Shown piece by piece: positions 21,728-34,388 of a DNA stretch of 64,000 bases. The translations under genes and the position numbers were made by a program. The notes under the pieces were generated by a model that ran no database searches, was not told where the DNA came from, and saw only the letters and a list, made by a program, of their open reading frames with translations. This stretch comes from Lyngbya sp. HA4199-MV5 (GTDB taxonomy: Bacteria > Cyanobacteriota > Cyanobacteriia > Leptolyngbyales > Leptolyngbyaceae), in NCBI GenBank assembly GCA_019359375.1, contig JAHHHL010000011.1, positions 1-64,000 on the forward strand. Reading direction: 5' to 3'. Within the stretch, counting starts at the first letter, position 1. The number at the start of each line of letters is the position of its first letter.

Positions 21728-21966
21728 GCTGATGGCTATCAACGCAGCCAGGCCTTGAACGTCTTACACGTATGCAAGCGTTTTTAACCTTTGCTAGAAA
21801 GTAAAGCATTGATGTGTCTTAAAGTTCAGCACGTTAGCTCAGAACTTCTTGGTTTTTTCATGAATCTACTAGCTGACTCACCATCCCTTTACTGACATAC
21901 CTAAGTACGACGTTTAGCATAGTGAGCGTAATCTTTTGTTTGCCGCAGATTCCTAAGAGGTGTTGC

Positions 21967-22740
21967 ATGAAGGCAGTGATATTGGCGGGCGGATTAGGTA
22001 CGCGATTAAGTGAAGAAACGGCAATTAAGCCAAAACCGATGGTTGAAGTTGGCGGTCAACCGATTCTTTGGCACATTATGAAAACCTACTCAGCCCACGG
22101 AGTGAATGACTTCATCATCTGCTGTGGCTACAAAGGGTATGTCATCAAAGAGTTTTTTGCAAACTACTTCCTGCGCATGTCAGATGTCACGTTTGACATG
22201 CGCTTCAACCAGATGAACATCCACGCTGGTAATGCCGAACCGTGGCGCGTCACGCTGGTGGACACAGGTGAAAATACCATGACGGGCGGACGGCTTAAGC
22301 GCGTGCGCGAACATGTTGGCAATGAAACCTTTTGCTTTACTTACGGTGATGGTGTCAGCAACGTTAATGTTTCAAAGCTGATTGAATTTCACAAAGCTGA
22401 AGGCGCAGCGGCTACCCTCACAGCCGTACAACCCCCTGGACGCTTTGGAGCCATTTCCCTCACCAAAGAGCAAACCAAAATCGCACAGTTTCATGAAAAG
22501 CCAGAAGGGGATGGTGCCTGGATCAACGGTGGCTACTTTGTTCTAGAACCAGAAGTGATTGACTACATTGAGGATGACACCGTGATGTGGGAACACGAAC
22601 CGTTGAAAAAGATTGCTCATGATGGCAAGCTAGCAGCCTTCAGGCATGGCGGGTTCTGGCAACCGATGGATACCCTCAAAGACAAGAACTACCTGGAAGA
22701 TCTGTGGCAGAAAGGGAAAGCACCCTGGAAAGTTTGGTAG
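21967..22740 (+). CDS. rfbF: Glucose-1-phosphate cytidylyltransferase
   Basis: A 257-residue nucleotidyltransferase making CDP-glucose from CTP and glucose-1-phosphate. The nucleotide-binding start [15 protein letters not shown], the family [31 protein letters not shown] and the [14 protein letters not shown] end are all intact. It starts a six-gene same-strand cluster for a cell-surface sugar. The CDP-glucose 4,6-dehydratase (rfbG) that normally follows is not among the neighbours. ATG 21967 is chosen over GTG 21922 because the family begins exactly at MKAVILAGG, and GAGGTGTTGC upstream gives a ribosome-binding site. Confidence 0.92.
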
Positions 22741-22817
22741 ATCTGGCAGTCCTGACAACAGATTGCTGATGCGATCGACCATTTCATTCAAAGCAACCTC
22801 ATTAAGGGCAAATATTT

Positions 22818-24032
22818 ATGTACGATTTTGCGATCGTCGGTGGTGGCATCGTCGGTCTTTCTACGGGCGTTGCCCTCACTCAACGCTATCCAGACGCAAA
22901 GATCCTGGTACTTGAAAAAGAAAGCCGCTGGGCGTTTCATCAAACAGGCAACAATAGTGGCGTGATCCACTCTGGACTCTACTACAAACCTGGTAGCTTC
23001 AAAGCAACCTTTTGTCGTGCGGGTGCTCAATCAATGGTTGCCTTTTGCCAGGAACATGACATCCCCCACGAAGTTTGTGGCAAGGTTATTGTTGCCACTG
23101 AAGAAAAAGAGCTACCGTTGCTAGAAAATCTCTATCAGCGTGGCTTGCAGAACGACATCAAAGTCAAACGACTCACCGCCGAAGAAGTCCGAGAAATTGA
23201 ACCCCACGTCAACTGCATTGCTGGGGTACAGGTCTTTTCTACAGGTATTGCCGACTACAAGAAGGTGTGTCAAAAGTATGCTGAACTGGTTCAACTCGGT
23301 GGCGGTGATTTACGCCTGAATACCAAAGTGCTGAAGATTGTTGAAACGCCAACAGGTCAGGTGCTTGAAACCAATCAAGGCACGTTCGAAACGCGGTTTG
23401 TCGTGAACTGTGCTGGTTTGCACAGCGATCGTGTCGCCAAAATGGGCAACGTTGACCCTCAGGCAAAGATTGTGCCCTTCCGTGGGGAATACTACGAGCT
23501 AACCCCCGAAAAGCGCTATCTGGTCAAAGGACTCATTTATCCTGTGCCAAATCCTGACTTCCCGTTTCTGGGTGTCCACTTTACCCGCATGATCGATGGC
23601 ACCGTTCATGCAGGTCCCAATGCGGTACTTAGCCTCAAGCGTGAAGGGTACAAGAAGACCGATTTTGATCTCCGTGACTTTGCTGAAGTGATGACCTATC
23701 CCGCCTTTTGGAAATTGGCAGCCAAGCACGCAGATGAAGGTATCAAGGAGATTATCCGTTCCTTCAGCAAAGCGGCATTTGTCCATAGTTTGCAGCGGCT
23801 CATCCCAGAAGTGCAAGCTGAAGATGTCGTTCCCACCCATGCAGGTGTGCGGGCGCAAGCACTCATGAGCGATGGCAAGCTGGTAGACGATTTTCTGATT
23901 ATCAAAGGTCAGAACTCTGTTCATGTTTGTAACGCACCTTCTCCTGCGGCGACCTCTTCCATCGAAATTGGAAAAGCTGTTGTGGCACAAATCCCTGCAC
24001 CACAGCACTTACGCACAACCGTCAACGTCTAG
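22818..24032 (+). CDS. lhgO: L-2-hydroxyglutarate oxidase-like FAD protein
   Basis: A 404-residue DAO-superfamily flavoprotein. The FAD-binding VGGGIVGLSTGVAL begins at residue 7, the family run NNSGVIHSGLYYKPGS is complete, and the C-terminal HAGVRAQA and VHVCNAPSPAATSSIEIG match the LhgO group. Known LhgO oxidises L-2-hydroxyglutarate to 2-oxoglutarate, passing electrons to oxygen or quinones. Here it lies inside a nucleotide-sugar cluster, which is not its usual metabolic repair setting, so a role on a related 2-hydroxy acid in sugar assembly is possible (inference). Spacing: 77 bp after rfbF, 21 bp before the next gene. Confidence 0.85.
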   Translation: MYDFAIVGGGIVGLSTGVALTQRYPDAKILVLEKESRWAFHQTGNNSGVIHSGLYYKPGSFKATFCRAGAQSMVAFCQEHDIPHEVCGKVIVATEEKELPLLENLYQRGLQNDIKVKRLTAEEVREIEPHVNCIAGVQVFSTGIADYKKVCQKYAELVQLGGGDLRLNTKVLKIVETPTGQVLETNQGTFETRFVVNCAGLHSDRVAKMGNVDPQAKIVPFRGEYYELTPEKRYLVKGLIYPVPNPDFPFLGVHFTRMIDGTVHAGPNAVLSLKREGYKKTDFDLRDFAEVMTYPAFWKLAAKHADEGIKEIIRSFSKAAFVHSLQRLIPEVQAEDVVPTHAGVRAQALMSDGKLVDDFLIIKGQNSVHVCNAPSPAATSSIEIGKAVVAQIPAPQHLRTTVNV

Positions 24033-24053
24033 CACGCTTATTAGGAAGAAACA

Positions 24054-25082
24054 ATGAAAGTATTGGTGACTGGAACAGAAGGGTATCTTGGCTCGTTGCT
24101 GGCTCCCCTGTTGATGGAGCGCGGGCATGAAATTACGGCGGTTGATACTGGCTACTACAAAGTGGGCTGGTTGTACAACGGCACTGATTTGACCGCGAAG
24201 ACGCTTAACAAAGATATCCGTCACATCACGGTTGAGGATTTGGCAGGGATTGAGGCGATCGTTCACATGGCAGAACTCTCCAACGATCCGACTGGTCAAC
24301 TGTCGCCGACAATCACCTACGACATTAACCACAAAGGGTCAGTCCGGCTGGCTGAAATCGCTAAAGCGGCTGGTGTGCGCCGCTTTGTGTATATGTCTTC
24401 ATGCAGCGTGTATGGTGTTGCCAGCGGTGACGGTCTGACGACGGAAGAAACTCCCGTTAATCCTCAGACTGCTTATGCAGAATGTAAAACGCTGGTAGAG
24501 CGGGATGTTAGACCCCTAGCCGATGATAATTTCTCGCCCACCTTCATGCGGAACGCCACAGCCTTTGGTGCCTCTCCTCGAATGCGCTTTGACATTGTGC
24601 TGAATAACCTGGCTGGGCTTGCCTGGACAACCAAAGAGATCAAAATGATCAGTGATGGGACACCCTGGCGACCTCTGGTGCACGCGCTGGACATTGCCAA
24701 GTCGATCGCTTGTGCGTTAGAAGCACCCCGTGACATTGTTCACAACCAGGTGTTTAACGTCGGTGATACCGCAAACAACTACCGGGTGAAAGAAATTGCT
24801 GAAATCATCGCCAGCGTCTTTGAGGGTTGTCAGCTCAGCTTTGGTGACAGCGGCTCAGATAACCGCAGCTACCGCGTCTCCTTCGAGAAGATCAACACTC
24901 AACTACCCGGCTTTAAGTGCGACTGGAACGCTCAACGTGGCGCACAACAGTTGTTTGATCTGTTCAACCGGATTGATATGACAAAAGAGGTGTTTGAATC
25001 GCGGGGCTTTACGCGCCTGAAGCAGCTTGAATACCTGATTCGCACCCAGCAAATTGACAAAGATTTCTTTTGGAGCAAGTAA
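24054..25082 (+). CDS. NAD-dependent epimerase/dehydratase (extended SDR)
   Basis: A 342-residue extended short-chain dehydrogenase. It has the N-terminal NAD motif TGTEGYLGSLL, the SSCSVYG strand before the active site, and catalytic Tyr-x3-Lys as YAECK with upstream Ser/Thr. The C-terminal substrate region (NVGDTANNYRVKEIAE) is typical of nucleotide-sugar enzymes. It probably acts on the CDP-sugar started by RfbF. It could be a 4-reductase, 4-epimerase or stand in for a dehydratase; I cannot decide which. Its TAA overlaps the ATG of the next gene (TAATG), which implies translational coupling. Confidence 0.85.
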   Translation: MKVLVTGTEGYLGSLLAPLLMERGHEITAVDTGYYKVGWLYNGTDLTAKTLNKDIRHITVEDLAGIEAIVHMAELSNDPTGQLSPTITYDINHKGSVRLAEIAKAAGVRRFVYMSSCSVYGVASGDGLTTEETPVNPQTAYAECKTLVERDVRPLADDNFSPTFMRNATAFGASPRMRFDIVLNNLAGLAWTTKEIKMISDGTPWRPLVHALDIAKSIACALEAPRDIVHNQVFNVGDTANNYRVKEIAEIIASVFEGCQLSFGDSGSDNRSYRVSFEKINTQLPGFKCDWNAQRGAQQLFDLFNRIDMTKEVFESRGFTRLKQLEYLIRTQQIDKDFFWSK

Positions 25083-25621
25083 TGAAATTCATCAAGACGA
25101 AACTAAAAGATGCAGTGATTGTTGACCTGGAAGTGCGGAGTGACGATCGCGGCGGCTTTGCTCGCACCTTCTGTGCCAAAGAATTTGAGGAGCATGGGCT
25201 GAAGCCAACCGTGGCTCAGTGCAATCTATCCTTCAACTACAAGGCAGGCACGCTGAGAGGGATGCACTACCAGGTCGCCCCCGCTTGTGAAACGAAGCTT
25301 GTCCGTTGCACCAAGGGCGCGATTTACGATGTCATCATCGATATGCGCCCCGATTCTCCTACCTACATGCAGCATATTGGCGTGGAATTAACGGAAGAAA
25401 ATCGACGTGCGCTGTATGTGCCAGAGATGTTTGCTCATGGCTACCAGGCGCTAACCGATGGGGCTGAAGTCGTGTACCAGGTGGGTGAGTTTTACACGCC
25501 TGGTTACGAGCGAGGGCTGCGCTATGATGATCCAGTCTTTAAAATTGAATGGCCGATGCCTGTGACGGTTATTTCTGAGAAGGATGCTGCCTGGTCACTC
25601 TTTGAGCCTGTTCCGGTTTAA
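25082..25621 (+). CDS. rfbC: RmlC-like dTDP-4-dehydrorhamnose 3,5-epimerase family protein
   Basis: A 179-residue cupin of the RmlC family. Visible family features: DDRGGFARTFCAKEF, the catalytic-His region NYKAGTLRGMHYQ, TKGAIYDVIIDMR, and FAHGYQALTDGAEVVYQ with the catalytic-Tyr region. The product epimerises a 4-keto sugar nucleotide at C3 and/or C5. In this cluster the substrate is more likely a CDP-sugar than dTDP-rhamnose precursor, because no rmlA/B/D is present (inference). The start is ATG 25082, overlapping the previous stop. Confidence 0.88.
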   Translation: MKFIKTKLKDAVIVDLEVRSDDRGGFARTFCAKEFEEHGLKPTVAQCNLSFNYKAGTLRGMHYQVAPACETKLVRCTKGAIYDVIIDMRPDSPTYMQHIGVELTEENRRALYVPEMFAHGYQALTDGAEVVYQVGEFYTPGYERGLRYDDPVFKIEWPMPVTVISEKDAAWSLFEPVPV

Positions 25622-25680
25622 CTCAGTCGTTGACGATCGCGGCTTGGTGTCAGCTCCACCGACCTTTCAGAGGCTTTTGG

Positions 25681-26652
25681 ATGAAATTAAGTGTGATTCT
25701 TCCTTGCTTCAACGGAGCACAAACCATTGCTGTTCAGCTTGAGGCGCTCGTCAACCAGCAATGGCCTGGCGTGTGGGAAGTGGTTGTCGTCAACAACGGC
25801 TCAACGGACAACTCAGTCGAGATTGTCGAGCAGTACCGCGATCGTTTACCTGACTTACGGGTTGTCGATGCCTACACTCCGCCTGGTCCACGGCTGGGAG
25901 TATCCCACTCCTATAACGTCGGACTTAAAGCCGCTACAGGCGATGCGTTTGTTTTCTGTGAGGCGGATGATGAAGTGGCATCCGATTGGTTAGCCGCGAT
26001 GGCTAACGCCCTTGCTCAGTTTGAATTCGTGGCTGGAGCACTGGAACACAAACGTTTGAATGAAGACTGGTTAAGTGCGGCTCATGACAAGGGCGCACAA
26101 TCGGAGGGGTTAGTAGGAGTCACCTATCCGCCCTACCTACCTTTCGCGTTCGGCTGTAACATGGGTATTCGGCGATCGCTCTATGAGGCGATGGGGGAAC
26201 TAGATGAATCTCTCATCTGCGCCTGGGATATGGATTATTCGTGGAAGGTTCAACTGGCAGGGACGAAACTACATTTTGTCCCTGAAGCCGTAGTCCATTA
26301 CCGTCTGCGCCATACGCTCAAGGCTTTGTATCGTCAGGGTAACAACTGGGGTCCAGAACTTCCTCTGCTGCAACAACGCTACGGCATGAAGATGGATTGG
26401 TCTGTTTTCCGGAACCATTTGTTTTACCTGTTGAAGTACCTGCCGGGTGGAGTCAAATTGCTGCCCATGAGCATTTTCAGAATCCGACGAGGGCGAGGAG
26501 GCTTTGCCTGGTGGGTTTGGGGACTCGGTTATTCACTGGGGTATGCTCAAGGGCTGCTTGATTTGTTACTGCATTCTTCTTCGTCAGAACGCAGCTTAGA
26601 GTCCAGCGCTCAACGTTCACAAAAGCCAGTTGATGCCAAGGCAAATCCATAG
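25681..26652 (+). CDS. Family 2 glycosyltransferase
   Basis: A 323-residue GT-A fold glycosyltransferase. It opens KLSVILPCFNGAQTI, then VVNNGSTDNS (the GT2 NGSxD motif), CEADDEVASDW (the metal-binding DxD-like site) and AWDMDYSWKVQLAG with the likely catalytic Asp. The C-terminus is basic and hydrophobic (about 250-300), suggesting membrane association without clear spans. It probably transfers the sugar made by this cluster onto a surface polysaccharide. ATG 25681, at the start of the domain, is preferred over TTG 25630. Confidence 0.88.
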   Translation: MKLSVILPCFNGAQTIAVQLEALVNQQWPGVWEVVVVNNGSTDNSVEIVEQYRDRLPDLRVVDAYTPPGPRLGVSHSYNVGLKAATGDAFVFCEADDEVASDWLAAMANALAQFEFVAGALEHKRLNEDWLSAAHDKGAQSEGLVGVTYPPYLPFAFGCNMGIRRSLYEAMGELDESLICAWDMDYSWKVQLAGTKLHFVPEAVVHYRLRHTLKALYRQGNNWGPELPLLQQRYGMKMDWSVFRNHLFYLLKYLPGGVKLLPMSIFRIRRGRGGFAWWVWGLGYSLGYAQGLLDLLLHSSSSERSLESSAQRSQKPVDAKANP

Positions 26653-26769
26653 CCGTTTCACATTCAGTGAGAATCGCCCTGAATGAAACCTTTCAAGGCG
26701 TTGAGTTCAGGTTCTCTGTCAAATTCAGCGTCATTCATTTGCTTGAACAAGTTTTTTTAGGAGTTACCC

Positions 26770-28080
26770 ATGTTCATCGTTGATACCGCCTTAAAAGTCC
26801 GCGCAGAAGCGGGAAAGCCCGTTAAAGTTGGCATGATTGGTGCTGGCTTTATGGGACGTGGCATTGCGAACCAAATTGCAAACTCGGTTCCAGGGATGGA
26901 GCTGGTGGCAATTTTCAACCGCAACTTGGACGGGGCAAAGCGTGCCTACACCGAAGCGGGCATTGAGTCGTTCCAGGTTGTAAACACGGTTGCTGATTTA
27001 GAAGCTTCAGTTGCTCAAGGCAAGTATGCAGTGACGGATGATGCGATGCTGTTGTGTCGGTCAGAGGGCATTGATGCACTCATTGAAGTGACGGGTACGA
27101 TCGAATTTGGTGCTGAAGTCGTTCTGGAAGCGATCGCGCACAAAAAGCACGTCATTCTGATGAATGCTGAACTGGACGGCACCATTGGACCGATCCTCAA
27201 GGTATATGCTGACCGGGCTGGCGTGGTTCTTTCTGCCTGCGATGGCGACCAACCGGGCGTGGAAATGAACCTCTATCGCTTTGTGAAGAGCATTGGGTTG
27301 ACCCCGCTACTATGTGGCAATATCAAAGGTCTGCAAGATCCGTATCGGAACCCCACTACGCAAGAAGGGTTTGCAAAGAAGTGGGGACAGCAGGCACATA
27401 TGGTGACGAGCTTTGCTGATGGGAGCAAAATTTCCTTTGAACAGGCGATCGTGGCGAACGCGACTGGCATGAAAGTAGCAAAGCGTGGGATGTTGGGCTA
27501 CGACTTCAAGGGTCATGTCGATGAGATGACCAGCATGTACGATGTGGATCAACTCAAGGAGTTGGGCGGCATTGTGGATTATGTGGTCGGTTCAAAGCCC
27601 GGTCCCGGTGTATTTGTTTTCGGTACCCACGATGATCCGAAACAGCAGCATTACCTTAACCTCTATAAGTTAGGTGAAGGGCCGCTCTACAGTTTCTACA
27701 CCCCGTACCACCTGTGCCACTTTGAAGTGCCGCTATCCGTTGCACGGGTCGTGTTGTTCAACGATGCCGTTATGGCTCCGATCGCGGGACCCGTTGTGGA
27801 TGTGATTACCGTTGCCAAGATCGACTTGAAAGCAGGCGAAACGCTGGATGGCATCGGTTACTACATGACCTATGGTCAGTGCGAAAATTCCCCAGTCGTA
27901 CAGGCAGAGAACCTTTTGCCAATGGGCTTGGCTGAGGGATGCCGACTGAAGCGCGATGTTCCCAAAGACCGGGCGCTGACCTATGACGATGTGGAATTGC
28001 CGCCAAACCGCCTTAGTGACAAGCTACGGGCTGAGCAGAACGCTTATTTCGCTCCGGCTCCCGTGCTTGCTGCGGTATAA
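26770..28080 (+). CDS. COG4091 NAD(P)-binding oxidoreductase (homoserine dehydrogenase-like, SAF domain)
   Basis: A 436-residue protein. The N-terminal Rossmann motif is VGMIGAGFMGRGIANQI (residues 19-35). A middle region (GDQPGVEMNLYRF, GNIKGLQDPYRNP) matches the COG4091 family, which is distantly related to homoserine dehydrogenase, and a C-terminal SAF domain is marked by DVITVAKIDLKAGETLDGIG. Its reaction in bacteria is not established to my knowledge; members recur in polysaccharide clusters. It is the last gene of the sugar cluster, 117 bp after the GT2, with AGGAG at good spacing and a hairpin 21 bp after its stop. Confidence 0.82.
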   Translation: MFIVDTALKVRAEAGKPVKVGMIGAGFMGRGIANQIANSVPGMELVAIFNRNLDGAKRAYTEAGIESFQVVNTVADLEASVAQGKYAVTDDAMLLCRSEGIDALIEVTGTIEFGAEVVLEAIAHKKHVILMNAELDGTIGPILKVYADRAGVVLSACDGDQPGVEMNLYRFVKSIGLTPLLCGNIKGLQDPYRNPTTQEGFAKKWGQQAHMVTSFADGSKISFEQAIVANATGMKVAKRGMLGYDFKGHVDEMTSMYDVDQLKELGGIVDYVVGSKPGPGVFVFGTHDDPKQQHYLNLYKLGEGPLYSFYTPYHLCHFEVPLSVARVVLFNDAVMAPIAGPVVDVITVAKIDLKAGETLDGIGYYMTYGQCENSPVVQAENLLPMGLAEGCRLKRDVPKDRALTYDDVELPPNRLSDKLRAEQNAYFAPAPVLAAV

Positions 28081-28406: not shown

Positions 28407-31400
28407 ATGGACATCGCTAAAGGGGGATGGTCAAGGGGTTTTGGAACCCAATGTATTGAAACGACTCAAACATCCTCTTTACAGCCGTATGATGCAATTG
28501 AGTGGAAGCACGCTGTCGATCGCACTCAAGCTCTCATCTCTCTAGTCATCACAACTTACAATCGGGAGCGCTTTCTTGGTGCTGCCATTGAAAGTGTTTT
28601 AGCGCAAACCTATCCATACGTTGAGCTAGTGGTGTGGGATGATGGCTCGACCGATCGCACCTTAGAGATTGCCCATGCATATGCCAGTCGTGATGCGCGA
28701 GTCCGCGTGATTGCAGCACCCCATCAGGGACGAGTGCGATCGTTGCAAGCAGCCATCAGCCAGACGCGAGGAGCCTATCTGGGCTGGGTAGATAGCGACG
28801 ATCGTCTAGATCCCAAGGCTCTGGAAGCCACCATTGCCATTCTGAGCAGCCAACCAGCCATTGGCATGGTGTATACCGACTATTGGGATGTGGATAGCGA
28901 CGATCGCGTCTTGGGTTACGGTCAACGATGCCACATCCCTTACAGCAAAGAGCGTCTGCTGCTCGACTTTATGACGTTTCACTTTCGCTTGCTGCGGCGA
29001 TCGGTGTTTGAGGCGGCAGGCGGCATTGATGATGCGCTGGATTACGTTGAAGATTACGACCTTTGCTTGCGCCTCTCGGAAGTGTCGGCAATCCACCATC
29101 TTGAACAGCCGCTTTACTACTACCGTCATCATGAGGGCAATGCATCGCAGCAGTGGCGATTAGAGCAGGTGGTGCGATCGCAGACCGTGATTCAACGGGC
29201 ACTCCAACGGCGAGGGCTGGACAGACACTTTGAGCTTCAGGTGAAACTGCCAGCGGGACGTTTTTACTTGCGTCGCAAACTGCACCCAGTTCAAGCACGG
29301 AAGCCACTTTGGGCACTGTTGCCGCAGGTCGCAGCGGTTGGAGCGCTTGCCTTCTTGCCCTGTATGGATGTGTTGGTGACAAAGACGGCTCAGGCTCAGT
29401 CGATCGTCCCCGCTGCTGATGGAACGAACACGATCGTGACCCCCAACGGCAGTCGTCTCGATATTAGTGGCGGCACGCGATCGCAAGATGGCGCGAATCT
29501 CTTTCAGAGCTTTCAGCAGTTTGGCTTGACAACGAATCAGATCGCGAATTTCCTTGCTACACCACAGACACGTAATATCTTGGGACGTGTAGTGGGTGGG
29601 GATGCCTCGGTCATCAACGGGCTGATTCAAGTGACTGGCGGCAATGCCAACCTGTATTTGATGAATCCTGCTGGCATTATTTTTGGGGCAAATGCCAGCC
29701 TCAATGTGCCGGGTGCCCTTACAGTGACTACCGCAACCGGGATCGGGTTGAACAATCGCTGGTTCAGCGCGATCGGCTCCAACGACTACGCTACGTTGGT
29801 TGGCGATCCAAACGCCTTTGCCTTTACGGTGACGCAGCCAGGGGCGATCGTAAATGCGGGCACTCTATCCGTCGGTGCTGGACAGCGCCTTTCTCTCTTA
29901 GGTGGCGTTGTGATCAATACAGGGGCTCTGGCGGCTCCGGGAGGGGAGATCACGATCGCAGCCGTTCCAGGGCAATCGCTCATTCGGCTCAATCAGCCAG
30001 GAAGTTTGCTGAGCTTTGAACTTAATCCACTCAGCTCTCAACCCAACACGGCGGCACCAAATGCTTCTCTGTCATCCTTGCCTAATGTTTGGACACTACC
30101 GATCGCATCCTTGCCCGCTCTCCTCACAGGTGGAAGCCTGCAAAGCGCGACGGGCATCACGGTCAATGCCAATGGCACAGTCCGTTTGGTTGCGGTACCG
30201 CAGCAGAACATTGTGGTTGGGGCAGGAACCGCGATCGCCAGCGGCATGATTGATGCATCAGGTGCTGATACCGGAGCCTTCTCGACGGGCGGTACGGTGC
30301 AGCTTTTAGGGACTCAGGTAGGGGCGATCGGGGCGACGATTAGCGCTTCTGGTGCCACAGGTGGAGGCAATATCCTGTTAGGAGGTGGCGAACGGGGGCA
30401 AGGTGCTGTCCCCAATGCCTCCAGCACGGTGGTTGATTCTAGCTCGATCGTCACGGCTGATGGACTTCTCACTGGATCAGGTGGACGGGTGACGGTCTGG
30501 TCAAATGACGTGACTCAATTTCTCGGCAGTATCCGTGCGCGTGGAGGGGCACAGGCCGGCAACGGTGGGTTTGTTGAAGTCTCTAGCAAAGGCAGCCTTG
30601 CCTATCGAGGAGTGGTGGATGCCAGCGCACCAATGGGGACGTTGGGTACAGTGCTGCTAGACCCAGCCAACATCACGATCGTGGCCGGTAATGGCTACGG
30701 GTCAGCAGATGGACAACTGCCCACCATTTTTAGCGGTGATTTTCCTGGAGCAACCCTTACAATCTCGCAAAATGCGCTCCAAAATACAGCAGGCGACATC
30801 ATTTTAGAGGCGACCAACGACATCACTATGCAATCGCTGGTGAACGGCACACTTGCACTCACCGCAGGCGTGACATCCGTTACCTTTCGGGCGGATGCTG
30901 ATGGCAATGGGGTTGGTTCTTTCTCCATGAACCGAGGCGACACCATTACCACCAGTACAGGCGAAACGTCTAGCAATCTAGCTATTTCTGGAGCAAACCT
31001 GACGCTGGGAACGCTGACAACGGCGGCACCGTTTGCCAATGCTGGCACGATTACGCTAGCGGCTTCGGGGAACATTACGGCAACCGCGATCGACACGACG
31101 AGTTTTGAAAGCGGTATGGGCTTTGGCAATAGCGGTGGTGCAGTCAACGTGACGGCTGGTGGTAGTGTAGCCGTTGGCAACATTACGACAGTGGGCGCAC
31201 AGAATGCAGGCAGCGTCACGCTTGTGGCACAAGGCAATCTGACGACTGGCAACATCAGCGCAAATGTCGCCGTTCCACTTAGCAGAGAGGGCGGCAATGG
31301 GGGGGCGATCGCGCTTACCAGTACGGCTGGCTCAATCACCGCTGGCAGTCTGCTGACAACTGGGGCAATTCAGAGCGGTCGTGTTGCGCTACAGGCATCT

Positions 31401-33314
31401 AGCAGTAATGCAAACATCACCGTTACGTCGATCGATGCCAGTGCTTCTCAAGCGGGTGGTCTTGGCGGAACGGTGAATGTTACGGCTGGGCAATTTGTGC
31501 GAGGTACGGGGTTTACCAGCGCCAATCCGCGAGCAACGATCACCACAGCCGCCGACAGCAGCGGGGCAATCACGATTCAGCATGGTGGCGGTGGGTTAAA
31601 TGTGCCGTTTATTGTCGGGAACGCCACAACGAACGGGACGGCTGGCGCGATCGTCGCGGGTTCTGCTACTGCACCTAACACCCTCTCACCCACCCAATCC
31701 TTTTCTCAAGGTTTCACCCAGGGTTCGATTCAGATTCTGACCACTGCGCCACCACTAAAGCCCTCCAAACTACCTGAGGACGATCCGACAGATGTTCTCA
31801 TTGACACGTCAGAAGAACCGCCGCCGCTAGAGGCACCTGAAACTGCTGCTACTGCTTTCGATGACCCTGCTGCAACTGAAGCCGATCGCGAAGAAGAAGC
31901 GACCGATGAGTTTGAAACCTACCTGGATTTAGGAGACGAGATTCCCAATACATCTGAAGACGCAGGCAGTATTCTCAGCCAGATTGGAGCGGTTTCGGGC
32001 GTTAAGCCAGCGTTGGTGTATGCCTCTTTTGTGCCGCCAAATGTGGCTACCAATGCTGTCCCGGTGAATCGGGCAAGACCATTTGTAGCGTTGGCAAGGC
32101 AAGGAGATAAGGCAGGGCAAGGAGATAAGGCGATCGCATCCAGCAAACCGTTGGCAGCAAAATTTTCTGGCTCGATCGAACCATCGGTAAAGGCTCGAGC
32201 ACCATTGCCACAGTCTCGCATCGATCGTCGGTTAAGCGCTCAAGGACAAAAAGAGCCGCTGGCAAATGGGAACGACCAGCTCGAATTACTGGTTGTCACT
32301 GCTAACGGCAAACCGATTCGTCGCCTTGTTCCCGGTGCAACCCGCAGCCGAGTCTTGCAAGTGGTGCATCAATTTCTCAACGAAGTGACCGATTCGCGGA
32401 AGAACCGGACAACGACTTATCTGGCACCCTCACAGCAGCTTTATCGATGGCTCGTGGCACCGATCGAACCAGAGCTACAGGCAAGAGGCATTGGCAACCT
32501 GGCGTACATTGCCGATACCGGACTGCGCTTTCTGCCGCTGGGTGCGCTGCACGATGGTCGGCAGTTTCTCGTGGAAAAGTACAGCGTGGGGCTGATGCCT
32601 AGCCTGAACCTGACAGACACGCGCTACGTCAGTCTTAAGAAGGCGAAAGTTTTAGCGATGGGTGCATCTGAGTTTACTGACCAGCCACCACTGCCAGCCG
32701 TCCCAACAGAATTATCGGTCATTACTAAAGATCTGTGGACGGGTACGGCGCTGCTCAACCAGGCATTTACCCTGGAGAACTTGAAAGCCGAGCGGCAACA
32801 GGAGCCGTTTCAAATTATCCATTTAGCAACGCATAGCGAGTTTCAGCCTGGGGCGTTGAGCAACTCGTACATCCAGCTTTGGCAGACCAAGCTTCAGCTC
32901 AACCAACTCCGGCAGCTCGGCTGGAACAATCCACCCGTTGAACTACTGGTGCTGAGTGCTTGCCGCACGGCATTGGGTAGTGATGAAGCCGAACTGGGGT
33001 TTGCTGGTTTTGCCGTCCAGGCAGGGGTGAAGTCTGCTTTAGCCAGTCTTTGGTACGTCAGTGACGAGGGCACGTTGGGGCTGATGACCGAATTCTACCG
33101 TCAGCTACGATCGGCACCCATAAAGGCAGAAGCACTCCGGCAAGCCCAGATTGCTATGCTGAAAGGAGAGGTTCAAATCGTGCAGGGACAACTGCGTACC
33201 ACTCGCGGCGGCACGGTCCCGTTACCGATCGCATTAGCTGATCGTACGGATGATCATCGTCTATCTCACCCCTACTACTGGGCTGCGTTTACGCTGATTG
33301 GTAGCCCCTGGTGA
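28407..33314 (+). CDS. Fusion: GT2 glycosyltransferase - haemagglutinin (TPS) domain - CHAT protease
   Basis: One uninterrupted 1635-codon frame. Residues about 43-260 are a family 2 glycosyltransferase (SLVITTYNRERFLG, WDDGSTDRT, GWVDSDDR, EDYDLCLRLSE). Residues about 303-330 look like a signal peptide with basic start and AQA cleavage site after A330. Residues about 331-460 match the filamentous haemagglutinin N-terminal secretion domain (NLFQSFQQFGL, LYLMNPAGIIFGANA). Then come about 650 residues of Gly/Thr/Asn-rich beta-helix repeats to about 1110, an acidic linker, and a CHAT domain from about 1310 with catalytic His1476 (HLATHSEF) and Cys1519 (LSACRTALG). FHA-CHAT proteins are known from cyanobacteria and are exported by two-partner secretion; the N-terminal glycosyltransferase is unusual. 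Internal initiation at GTG 29241 would give an ordinary exported FHA-CHAT protein. No TpsB transporter is in the window. Confidence 0.85.
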   Translation: MDIAKGGWSRGFGTQCIETTQTSSLQPYDAIEWKHAVDRTQALISLVITTYNRERFLGAAIESVLAQTYPYVELVVWDDGSTDRTLEIAHAYASRDARVRVIAAPHQGRVRSLQAAISQTRGAYLGWVDSDDRLDPKALEATIAILSSQPAIGMVYTDYWDVDSDDRVLGYGQRCHIPYSKERLLLDFMTFHFRLLRRSVFEAAGGIDDALDYVEDYDLCLRLSEVSAIHHLEQPLYYYRHHEGNASQQWRLEQVVRSQTVIQRALQRRGLDRHFELQVKLPAGRFYLRRKLHPVQARKPLWALLPQVAAVGALAFLPCMDVLVTKTAQAQSIVPAADGTNTIVTPNGSRLDISGGTRSQDGANLFQSFQQFGLTTNQIANFLATPQTRNILGRVVGGDASVINGLIQVTGGNANLYLMNPAGIIFGANASLNVPGALTVTTATGIGLNNRWFSAIGSNDYATLVGDPNAFAFTVTQPGAIVNAGTLSVGAGQRLSLLGGVVINTGALAAPGGEITIAAVPGQSLIRLNQPGSLLSFELNPLSSQPNTAAPNASLSSLPNVWTLPIASLPALLTGGSLQSATGITVNANGTVRLVAVPQQNIVVGAGTAIASGMIDASGADTGAFSTGGTVQLLGTQVGAIGATISASGATGGGNILLGGGERGQGAVPNASSTVVDSSSIVTADGLLTGSGGRVTVWSNDVTQFLGSIRARGGAQAGNGGFVEVSSKGSLAYRGVVDASAPMGTLGTVLLDPANITIVAGNGYGSADGQLPTIFSGDFPGATLTISQNALQNTAGDIILEATNDITMQSLVNGTLALTAGVTSVTFRADADGNGVGSFSMNRGDTITTSTGETSSNLAISGANLTLGTLTTAAPFANAGTITLAASGNITATAIDTTSFESGMGFGNSGGAVNVTAGGSVAVGNITTVGAQNAGSVTLVAQGNLTTGNISANVAVPLSREGGNGGAIALTSTAGSITAGSLLTTGAIQSGRVALQASSSNANITVTSIDASASQAGGLGGTVNVTAGQFVRGTGFTSANPRATITTAADSSGAITIQHGGGGLNVPFIVGNATTNGTAGAIVAGSATAPNTLSPTQSFSQGFTQGSIQILTTAPPLKPSKLPEDDPTDVLIDTSEEPPPLEAPETAATAFDDPAATEADREEEATDEFETYLDLGDEIPNTSEDAGSILSQIGAVSGVKPALVYASFVPPNVATNAVPVNRARPFVALARQGDKAGQGDKAIASSKPLAAKFSGSIEPSVKARAPLPQSRIDRRLSAQGQKEPLANGNDQLELLVVTANGKPIRRLVPGATRSRVLQVVHQFLNEVTDSRKNRTTTYLAPSQQLYRWLVAPIEPELQARGIGNLAYIADTGLRFLPLGALHDGRQFLVEKYSVGLMPSLNLTDTRYVSLKKAKVLAMGASEFTDQPPLPAVPTELSVITKDLWTGTALLNQAFTLENLKAERQQEPFQIIHLATHSEFQPGALSNSYIQLWQTKLQLNQLRQLGWNNPPVELLVLSACRTALGSDEAELGFAGFAVQAGVKSALASLWYVSDEGTLGLMTEFYRQLRSAPIKAEALRQAQIAMLKGEVQIVQGQLRTTRGGTVPLPIALADRTDDHRLSHPYYWAAFTLIGSPW

Positions 33315-33464: not shown

Positions 33465-34388
33465 ATGAAAGTTGCGACCTGGAACGTAAACTCAATTCGC
33501 ACACGCCTGCACCATATTGTGAGCTGGCTGGAAGCCAATCCAGTAGACGTACTGTGTTTACAAGAAACGAAGGTTATGGATGAGAGCTTTCCCCAGCAGC
33601 CGTTTGCTGATTTGGGCTATCAGGCTTACATCGCTGGGCAGAAAAGCTACAACGGGGTTGCGCTCCTCAGTCGTCAGCCATTAAGTGAAGTCAGCATGGG
33701 CTTTGCACCCGTCTTAGGCGAAGGCGCGATCGACCTGGATGAGCAAAGACGCGTCATTACAGGCGTTCTGGATGGCGTTCGGATTTTGAACCTTTATGTT
33801 CCCAACGGTTCCTCAGTAGGCAGCGAAAAATATGCTTACAAACTGCGCTGGCTAGAGGCGCTGCGAGAGTATGTGCAGGCGTTGGGAGGGAGTCAGGGGG
33901 GAGAAGGCAGGAGGCAGGAGGCAGAGGGCAGAAGGCAGGAAGCAGGGGGAGCAGGGGAAGCAGGGGGAGCAGAGGGAGCAGGGGAAGGAATTCAACACTC
34001 CTCACCCCTCACCCCTCACTCCCCACTCCCCACTCCCCACTCCCTCCTAGTCTGCGGCGATTTCAACATTGCGCTCGAAGACATTGACATCCATGACCCA
34101 ACCGGACGCGAGAAAATGGTCATGGCGACTGATTTGGAGCGGCAAGCATTGCAGTCTGTGCTGGAATCCGGGCTATCGGATGCGTTTCGCAAATTCACAG
34201 TGGAAGGCGGTCACTTTAGCTGGTGGGATTACCGCGCGGCGGCATTTCGGCGTAATCTCGGCTGGCGGATTGACCACATTTACCTGACACCCGATCTCTA
34301 TGCAAAAGCGATCGCCTGTGCGATCGACCCAGAACCTCGTAAGCTTGAACAACCCAGCGATCACGTTCCGGTATGGGTAGAACTTTAG
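33465..34388 (+). CDS. xth: Exodeoxyribonuclease III with in-frame repeat insertion
   Basis: A 307-residue DNA repair nuclease (AP endonuclease and 3' phosphatase/exonuclease). Family motifs: KVATWNVNSIRTRL at the start, LCLQETKV with metal-binding Glu, NLYVPNG, CGDFNIALEDIDIHDP with catalytic Asp-Asn, and the end DHVPVWVEL with the catalytic His. The usual length is about 255-260. The extra 50 or so residues (about 141-193) are a Gly/Glu/Arg then Ser/Pro/His low-complexity stretch encoded by a heptamer repeat insertion at about 33885-34046. It lies on a surface loop just before the CGDFN strand, so activity may be kept. It is a single-gene unit. Confidence 0.92.
   Translation: MKVATWNVNSIRTRLHHIVSWLEANPVDVLCLQETKVMDESFPQQPFADLGYQAYIAGQKSYNGVALLSRQPLSEVSMGFAPVLGEGAIDLDEQRRVITGVLDGVRILNLYVPNGSSVGSEKYAYKLRWLEALREYVQALGGSQGGEGRRQEAEGRRQEAGGAGEAGGAEGAGEGIQHSSPLTPHSPLPTPHSLLVCGDFNIALEDIDIHDPTGREKMVMATDLERQALQSVLESGLSDAFRKFTVEGGHFSWWDYRAAAFRRNLGWRIDHIYLTPDLYAKAIACAIDPEPRKLEQPSDHVPVWVEL
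33885..34046 (+). repeat. Heptamer repeat insertion inside xth
   Basis: A purine tract of AGGCAGA/AGCAGGGG-type units is followed by a pyrimidine tract of CTCACCC and CCCCACT units. The total length leaves the xth frame open. Tracts of the same architecture occur at 45627-45720, 51614-51698 and 58795-58970. Confidence 0.85.

What the first reader, a model, noticed from the sequence alone, without database searches (positions are those of the whole stretch)
28407..33314. Glycosyltransferase, haemagglutinin secretion domain and CHAT protease in one reading frame
FHA-CHAT proteins are known in cyanobacteria, and CHAT proteases have been shown elsewhere to act as cell-death or defence effectors (for example TPR-CHAT of type III-E CRISPR and CHAT caspases in bacterial gasdermin systems). 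Here a complete GT2 domain with its DGSxD and DxD motifs is fused in front, and a signal peptide with an AQA site lies inside the chain at about residues 303-330. A cytoplasmic sugar transferase joined to an exported protease is hard to place. Either the GT2 stays inside while the rest is threaded out, or two products are made (internal start at GTG 29241), or the chain is cut. His1476 and Cys1519 of the protease are both intact. A self-glycosylating, exported caspase-like effector is one possibility.
Basis: partly seen in the sequence, partly recalled or inferred. Interest (0 to 1): 0.85.

Follow-up and report, generated by a model that had tools for sequence, protein, structure and literature searches.

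The report
Sugar transferase fused to exported protease
Many filamentous cyanobacteria make one long protein in which a sugar-attaching enzyme is followed by an internal export signal, a surface-secretion domain and a caspase-like protease; the fusion is conserved and so probably matters, but what the sugar enzyme does for the exported protease is not yet known.

Summary
Window 28407-33314 is one intact 1635-aa frame: GT2 (residues 45-202), signal peptide ending AQA330|Q, TPS secretion domain (337-537), repeat passenger, CHAT protease (1340-1633; His1476, Cys1519). It is neither an artefact nor a local oddity. I found 59 distinct GT2-TPS fusions across several families of filamentous cyanobacteria. 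All 48 unbroken ones end in CHAT, and several lie in one-contig genomes. Catalytic residues of both enzymes are kept. The junction is under protein-level purifying selection (dN/dS 0.12-0.27). All 59 junctions carry a hydrophobic core and an A-x-A-like site, nearly all after a basic stretch. No internal start is conserved and three homologues have no possible one, so the dual-start idea fails as a general explanation. A TpsB gene is near 12 of the fused genes.

Best reading: a TpsA precursor whose 'extended signal peptide' is a whole cytosolic glycosyltransferase. Signal peptidase should separate GT2 from the exported TPS-CHAT part. GT2 probably sugar-modifies its own passenger before export, like HMW1C/EtpC but in cis and from GT2; this last step is inferred. 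The rival that GT2 makes separate surface glycan is serious: its nearest solved relative is chondroitin polymerase. No defence role is supported.

The parts
28407..33314 (+). GT2-TPS-CHAT fusion gene, 1635 aa
   Evidence: open frame, Pfam domains, 59 homologues
28407..28526 (+). N-terminal ~40 residues, not conserved (dN/dS 0.6-1.6); true start may lie further downstream
28527..29231 (+). GT2 glycosyltransferase domain, residues 41-275
   Evidence: PF00535; nucleotide-binding and DxD residues kept; best fold match chondroitin polymerase K4CP
29232..29396 (+). junction: basic stretch, hydrophobic core (~302-324) and A-x-A site (AQA 328-330); internal signal peptide
   Evidence: 59 of 59 homologous junctions; dN/dS 0.20-0.27
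29415..30017 (+). TPS secretion domain, residues 337-537, with NPxG motif at 420-423
   Evidence: PF05860 E 5.4e-37, TIGR01901 E 3.5e-21
30018..31748 (+). repeat-rich, cysteine-free passenger (likely beta-helix), residues 538-1114
   Evidence: partial match to solved EtpA chains; composition
31749..31964 (+). acidic, proline-rich linker, residues 1115-1186
32424..33305 (+). CHAT caspase-like protease domain, residues 1340-1633
   Evidence: PF12770 E 3.2e-70; AlphaFold2 model pLDDT 84, best fold match TPR-CHAT/Csx29
32832..32834 (+). catalytic His1476 codon
   Evidence: His in 73 of 73 aligned CHAT domains
32961..32963 (+). catalytic Cys1519 codon; the only cysteine downstream of the predicted cleavage site
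   Evidence: Cys in 73 of 73; cysteine list
21922..28080 (+). six co-directional genes for nucleotide-sugar / glycan synthesis (NTP transferase, DAO, epimerase, RmlC-type, GT2, DRL oxidoreductase) kept upstream of the fusion in three orthologous loci

Best explanation
The gene encodes a two-partner-secretion exoprotein (TpsA type) made as one precursor with a cytosolic glycosyltransferase in front. GT2 folds in the cytoplasm. The internal signal peptide behind it sends the rest through Sec. Signal peptidase I cuts after AQA330, leaving GT2 inside (free, or anchored by the signal segment) and releasing TPS-passenger-CHAT to a TpsB pore. The exported part is a surface or secreted caspase-like protease on a beta-helical stalk. 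GT2 most likely adds sugar to its own passenger, or to a glycan on it, before or during export: the role HMW1C and EtpC have as separate proteins. Shown by sequence: the conserved fusion, catalytic residues, signal features, TPS domain and TpsB neighbours. Inferred: cleavage, localisation, acceptor and protease substrate.
For: 59 distinct fused ORFs, all 48 complete ones ending in CHAT. GT2 catalytic residues mostly 97-100% kept in the 39 fused ORFs first aligned. CHAT His/Cys 48/48. Junction coding constraint. Every junction has a hydrophobic 12-mer of at least 1.59 (15.6% of control segments), mean K/R 3.9 against D/E 0.5 upstream, and an A-x-A-like site. Unfused TPS-CHAT relatives start with the same kind of signal peptide at their N-terminus. 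TpsB gene near 12 fused genes, ShlB+POTRA confirmed for two; nine TpsB homologues in the own genome. 58 of 59 fused GT2 domains lie in one cluster although their TPS domains mix with unfused ones, so this GT2 line looks dedicated to TPS-CHAT proteins. GT2-TPS and GT2-CHAT distances correlate at least as well as TPS-CHAT. HMW1C precedent: PMC3983070, PMC5422565. Extended FhaB signal peptide slows export: PMC5422565.
Against: The GT2 is most like a polysaccharide-making enzyme (chondroitin polymerase, E 6.5e-53), so its acceptor may be a sugar and not a protein. Fused and unfused passengers do not differ in Ser/Thr, Asn or N-x-S/T content. Many TPS-CHAT proteins do without GT2, and one tandem pair in Nostoc spongiaeforme has it on only one copy. 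Two related GT2s carry a signal segment with a different, short passenger (L100, L229). No protein data.
Confidence: 0.45

Rival explanations
1. Same topology and cleavage, but GT2 does not modify the passenger. It is released or membrane-anchored and builds cell-surface polysaccharide (for example the glycan to which the exported protein binds), with fusion ensuring equal amounts.
For: Closest solved relative is chondroitin polymerase. In Stenomitos the gene follows a conserved sugar-synthesis cluster. Stand-alone members of the same GT2 family are common.
Against: The fused GT2 line is almost exclusively tied to TPS-CHAT proteins, and the upstream sugar-gene cluster is seen only in the window's own orthologue group.
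Confidence: 0.3
2. GT2 is kept for a non-catalytic reason: as an extended cytosolic lead that slows export or acts as a chaperone or regulator for the long passenger.
For: Extended signal peptides slow FhaB export (PMC5422565); HMW1C itself may act as a chaperone (PMC3983070).
Against: Nucleotide-binding and DxD residues are 97-100% conserved with GT2 dN/dS 0.09-0.15, as expected of an active enzyme.
Confidence: 0.12
3. Two proteins are made from one transcript by an internal start before the signal peptide, so the fusion is only apparent.
For: GTG or TTG codons occur near the junction in most homologues; one genome (L194) has a two-ORF arrangement.
Against: No conserved start and almost no Shine-Dalgarno-like sequence; L146, L151 and L154 have no ATG/GTG/TTG that could begin the signal peptide. 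Linkers of very different length all stay in frame.
Confidence: 0.07
4. Exported or conditionally retained CHAT protease acting as a defence or cell-death effector.
For: CHAT fold closest to TPR-CHAT/Csx29 and SAVED-CHAT; CHASE2-CHAT or CHASE2-kinase and DUF928 genes near several copies.
Against: No defence-system match beyond a weak CHAT-domain hit; no recurring defence genes recognised beside the fused loci.
Confidence: 0.06

Closest known systems
HMW1ABC / EtpBAC two-partner secretion with a third partner glycosyltransferase
   Same: Large TPS exoprotein plus a dedicated cytosolic glycosyltransferase and TpsB pore
   Different: There the enzyme is a separate GT41 (GT-B) protein with defined N-glycosylation; here it is GT2 (GT-A), in cis, ahead of the signal peptide, and the passenger ends in a CHAT protease. 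Acceptor unknown
Cyanobacterial TPS-CHAT proteins without GT2
   Same: Same kind of signal peptide, TPS domain, repeat passenger and CHAT
   Different: No cytosolic enzyme in front; the signal peptide is N-terminal
TPR-CHAT/Csx29, SAVED-CHAT, separase, caspases
   Same: CHAT/caspase fold with His-Cys dyad
   Different: Those are intracellular effectors; this CHAT lies at the end of a predicted exported protein
K4CP chondroitin polymerase and stand-alone GT2 enzymes
   Same: GT-A fold, DxD and nucleotide-binding residues
   Different: Single GT2 unit fused to a secretory passenger
FhaB-type extended signal peptide TpsA proteins
   Same: Cytosolic extension before the signal peptide
   Different: The extension here is a whole enzyme domain

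Membership tests
Two-partner secretion TpsA exoprotein | TPS domain directly after a Sec signal peptide | tested here: met
   PF05860 E 5.4e-37; AQA site just before the domain match
Two-partner secretion TpsA exoprotein | Signal peptide at the N-terminus | tested here: not met
   It is internal, about residue 302-330, and internal in all 59 fused homologues
Two-partner secretion TpsA exoprotein | Cognate TpsB gene | tested here: inconclusive
   Near the fusion in 12 of 59 loci; not adjacent in the window's genome, where nine homologues exist elsewhere
Two-partner secretion TpsA exoprotein | Actual secretion through TpsB | not testable with these tools
   needs cell fractionation
Active GT2 glycosyltransferase | Nucleotide-binding and DxD residues in a GT-A fold | tested here: met
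Active GT2 glycosyltransferase | Sugar donor and acceptor | not testable with these tools
   needs enzyme assay
CHAT protease | Caspase-like fold with His-Cys dyad | tested here: met
HMW1C/EtpC-type TPS glycosylation | GT41 (HMW1C-like) enzyme | tested here: not met
   enzyme is GT2
HMW1C/EtpC-type TPS glycosylation | Glycosylated passenger | not testable with these tools
   no enrichment of sequons or Ser/Thr was seen, which is only indirect
Known anti-phage defence system | Match to a catalogued defence protein and partners | tested here: not met
   only a weak BovA match, E 6e-4

The most novel reading that the evidence does not exclude
A self-glycosylating two-partner-secretion protease: one precursor carries its own cytosolic GT2, which sugar-modifies the chain that follows it, after which signal peptidase cuts the enzyme off and the glycosylated caspase-like protease is placed on the cell surface.
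Probability: 0.35. Interest if true: 0.82.

Novelty: new variant of a known kind. Interest (0 to 1): 0.62.

Why it matters
A cytosolic enzyme joined through an internal, apparently cleavable signal peptide to an exported protease is an unusual topology, and it is kept by selection across filamentous cyanobacteria. If the GT2 modifies its own passenger it would be an in-cis version of TPS adhesin glycosylation. It would also show how cyanobacteria, which carry many CHAT proteases of unknown role, place one outside the cell. The held open-access library gave no paper naming the GT2-TPS-CHAT combination; this does not exclude one elsewhere.

Tried and rejected
Assembly artefact or frameshift fusion: rejected (conserved in 59, including one-contig genomes G019, G027, G030; junction dN/dS below 0.3). 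Dual start: not supported. TpsB next to the gene: none found; the one on the same contig is at C88:115279. Sequon or Ser/Thr enrichment as a sign of glycosylation: no difference. Defence filing: only a weak match. Sequence profile of CHAT against PDB: no hit at E 0.01; only fold comparison linked it to solved structures. Paper search for a bacterial precedent of an internal cleaved signal (Bradyrhizobium fbcH, recalled from memory) found nothing usable.

Full report
Observation. The frame 28407-33314 (+) is a single uninterrupted 1635-codon ORF. Pfam finds GT2 (45-202), a TPS secretion domain (337-537) and CHAT (1340-1633), all far above threshold. The internal signal peptide has a basic stretch, a hydrophobic core at about 302-324 and an AQA|QS site.

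Origin. The nearest named relatives are Stenomitos and other Leptolyngbyaceae, so the window comes from a filamentous cyanobacterium of about 6.9 Mb. The same genome has a second GT2-TPS-CHAT gene (C83, 1556 aa, 64% identical over GT2+TPS). It also has TPS-CHAT genes without GT2 at C87 and C42.

Conservation. Searches of relatives and of named genomes gave, after removal of identical copies, 59 GT2-TPS fusions, 48 of them complete, and every complete one ends in CHAT. The remaining eleven stop at contig ends or frame breaks. By NCBI names they include Leptolyngbyaceae, Nostocaceae, Calotrichaceae, Coleofasciculaceae, Trichocoleusaceae, Microcoleaceae, Oscillatoriaceae and Xenococcaceae. Copies in one-contig genomes are intact (G019, G027, G030).

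Selection. Between window orthologues, dN/dS is 0.11-0.15 for GT2, 0.20-0.27 for the junction, 0.07-0.10 for TPS and 0.06-0.08 for pre-CHAT+CHAT. In the second paralogue group the junction gives 0.12-0.14. The first 40 residues are unconstrained. The frame across the junction is therefore held as protein.

Junction. Linkers between the GT2 match and TPS vary from 20 to 240 residues, some with inserted mini-repeats, yet all stay in frame. All 59 have a hydrophobic 12-mer of hydropathy 1.59 or more, against 15.6% of 60-residue control segments of the passenger. The 20 residues before it hold on average 3.9 K/R and 0.5 D/E (K/R exceeds D/E in 55 of 59), and each is followed by an A-x-A-like site; that site pattern is permissive. 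Unfused TPS-CHAT proteins mostly begin with just such a signal peptide. No internal start codon is conserved, and three homologues have none at all in the usable stretch. One genome (L194) has the two parts as separate ORFs with an ATG before the signal peptide, but its CHAT is also broken.

Enzymes. GT2 nucleotide-binding and DxD residues are 97-100% kept in 39 fused ORFs and all kept in the 26 stand-alone relatives. The GT2 model (pLDDT 89, the signal segment poorly ordered) and the profile search both place it closest to chondroitin polymerase K4CP. The CHAT dyad is present in 73 of 73 domains. The CHAT model (pLDDT 84) is closest to TPR-CHAT/Csx29. The exported part of the window protein has a single cysteine, the catalytic one.

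Evolution. In the GT2 tree 58 of 59 fused domains fall in one cluster of 67 rows. Among the nine other rows are contig-edge or broken copies, two GT2s with a signal segment and a short Gly/Tyr/Pro or Pro-rich tail (L100, L229), and a GT2 with another C-terminal domain (L162). Support for that cluster is moderate (SH-aLRT 85). In the TPS tree fused and unfused domains mix (16 changes; starred branches force only 4). The simplest reading is one main joining of GT2 to a TPS-CHAT protein, followed by exchange or loss among paralogues. These are quick trees without bootstrap.

Neighbours. A TpsB gene lies near the fusion in 12 loci, mostly divergent and adjacent; two were checked and have ShlB and POTRA domains. 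Others have CHASE2-CHAT or CHASE2-kinase and DUF928 genes nearby. In Stenomitos-type orthologues six upstream genes of nucleotide-sugar and glycan synthesis are conserved, which suggests but does not prove a glycan link.

Interpretation. The anatomy fits a TpsA precursor with the glycosyltransferase left inside. Glycosylation of TPS adhesins in the cytoplasm by a dedicated partner is established for HMW1C (PMC3983070; PMC5422565). Here the enzyme is of another family and fused in cis, so it works like that system at most; it is not a member of it. Whether the passenger is the acceptor is the open step: the K4CP-like GT2 leaves polysaccharide synthesis as a serious alternative, and passenger composition gives no sign of glycosylation. 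A defence role has no support here. A published water extract of Nostoc lists a CHAT protein by the short peptide SLSLLGGTVV (PMC9895726), which resembles the TPS-region sequence RLSLLGGVV of the window protein; this is only a lead.

Noticed in passing
L100:8891-10087 and L229:6989-8125: GT2 of the same cluster followed by an internal signal peptide and a short Gly/Tyr/Pro-rich tail: a second kind of passenger behind the GT2-signal unit.
   Followed up: partly
L232:6998-14690: Nostoc spongiaeforme has a GT2-TPS-CHAT gene directly followed by a TPS gene with nearly identical TPS domain but no GT2: a natural with/without pair.
   Followed up: partly
window 33465-34388: The exonuclease III-type gene carries an in-frame low-complexity insert (GRRQEAEGRRQEAGG...SPLPTPHSLL); similar mini-repeat peptides sit in GT2-signal linkers of L084 and L188.
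   Followed up: no
L026:2796-10334 and L246:1957-9045: TPS-CHAT proteins without GT2 that have a long Pro/Ala/Ser-rich spacer (TPS starts only at about residue 305) between a hydrophobic N-terminal segment and the TPS domain.
   Followed up: no
L162:8216-9736: GT2 of this family fused to an unrelated C-terminal region that looks like a sulfotransferase (by eye only).
   Followed up: no
L144, L176, L086, L145, L146: CHASE2-CHAT or CHASE2-kinase and DUF928 genes recur near GT2-TPS-CHAT genes; possibly a signalling neighbourhood.
   Followed up: partly
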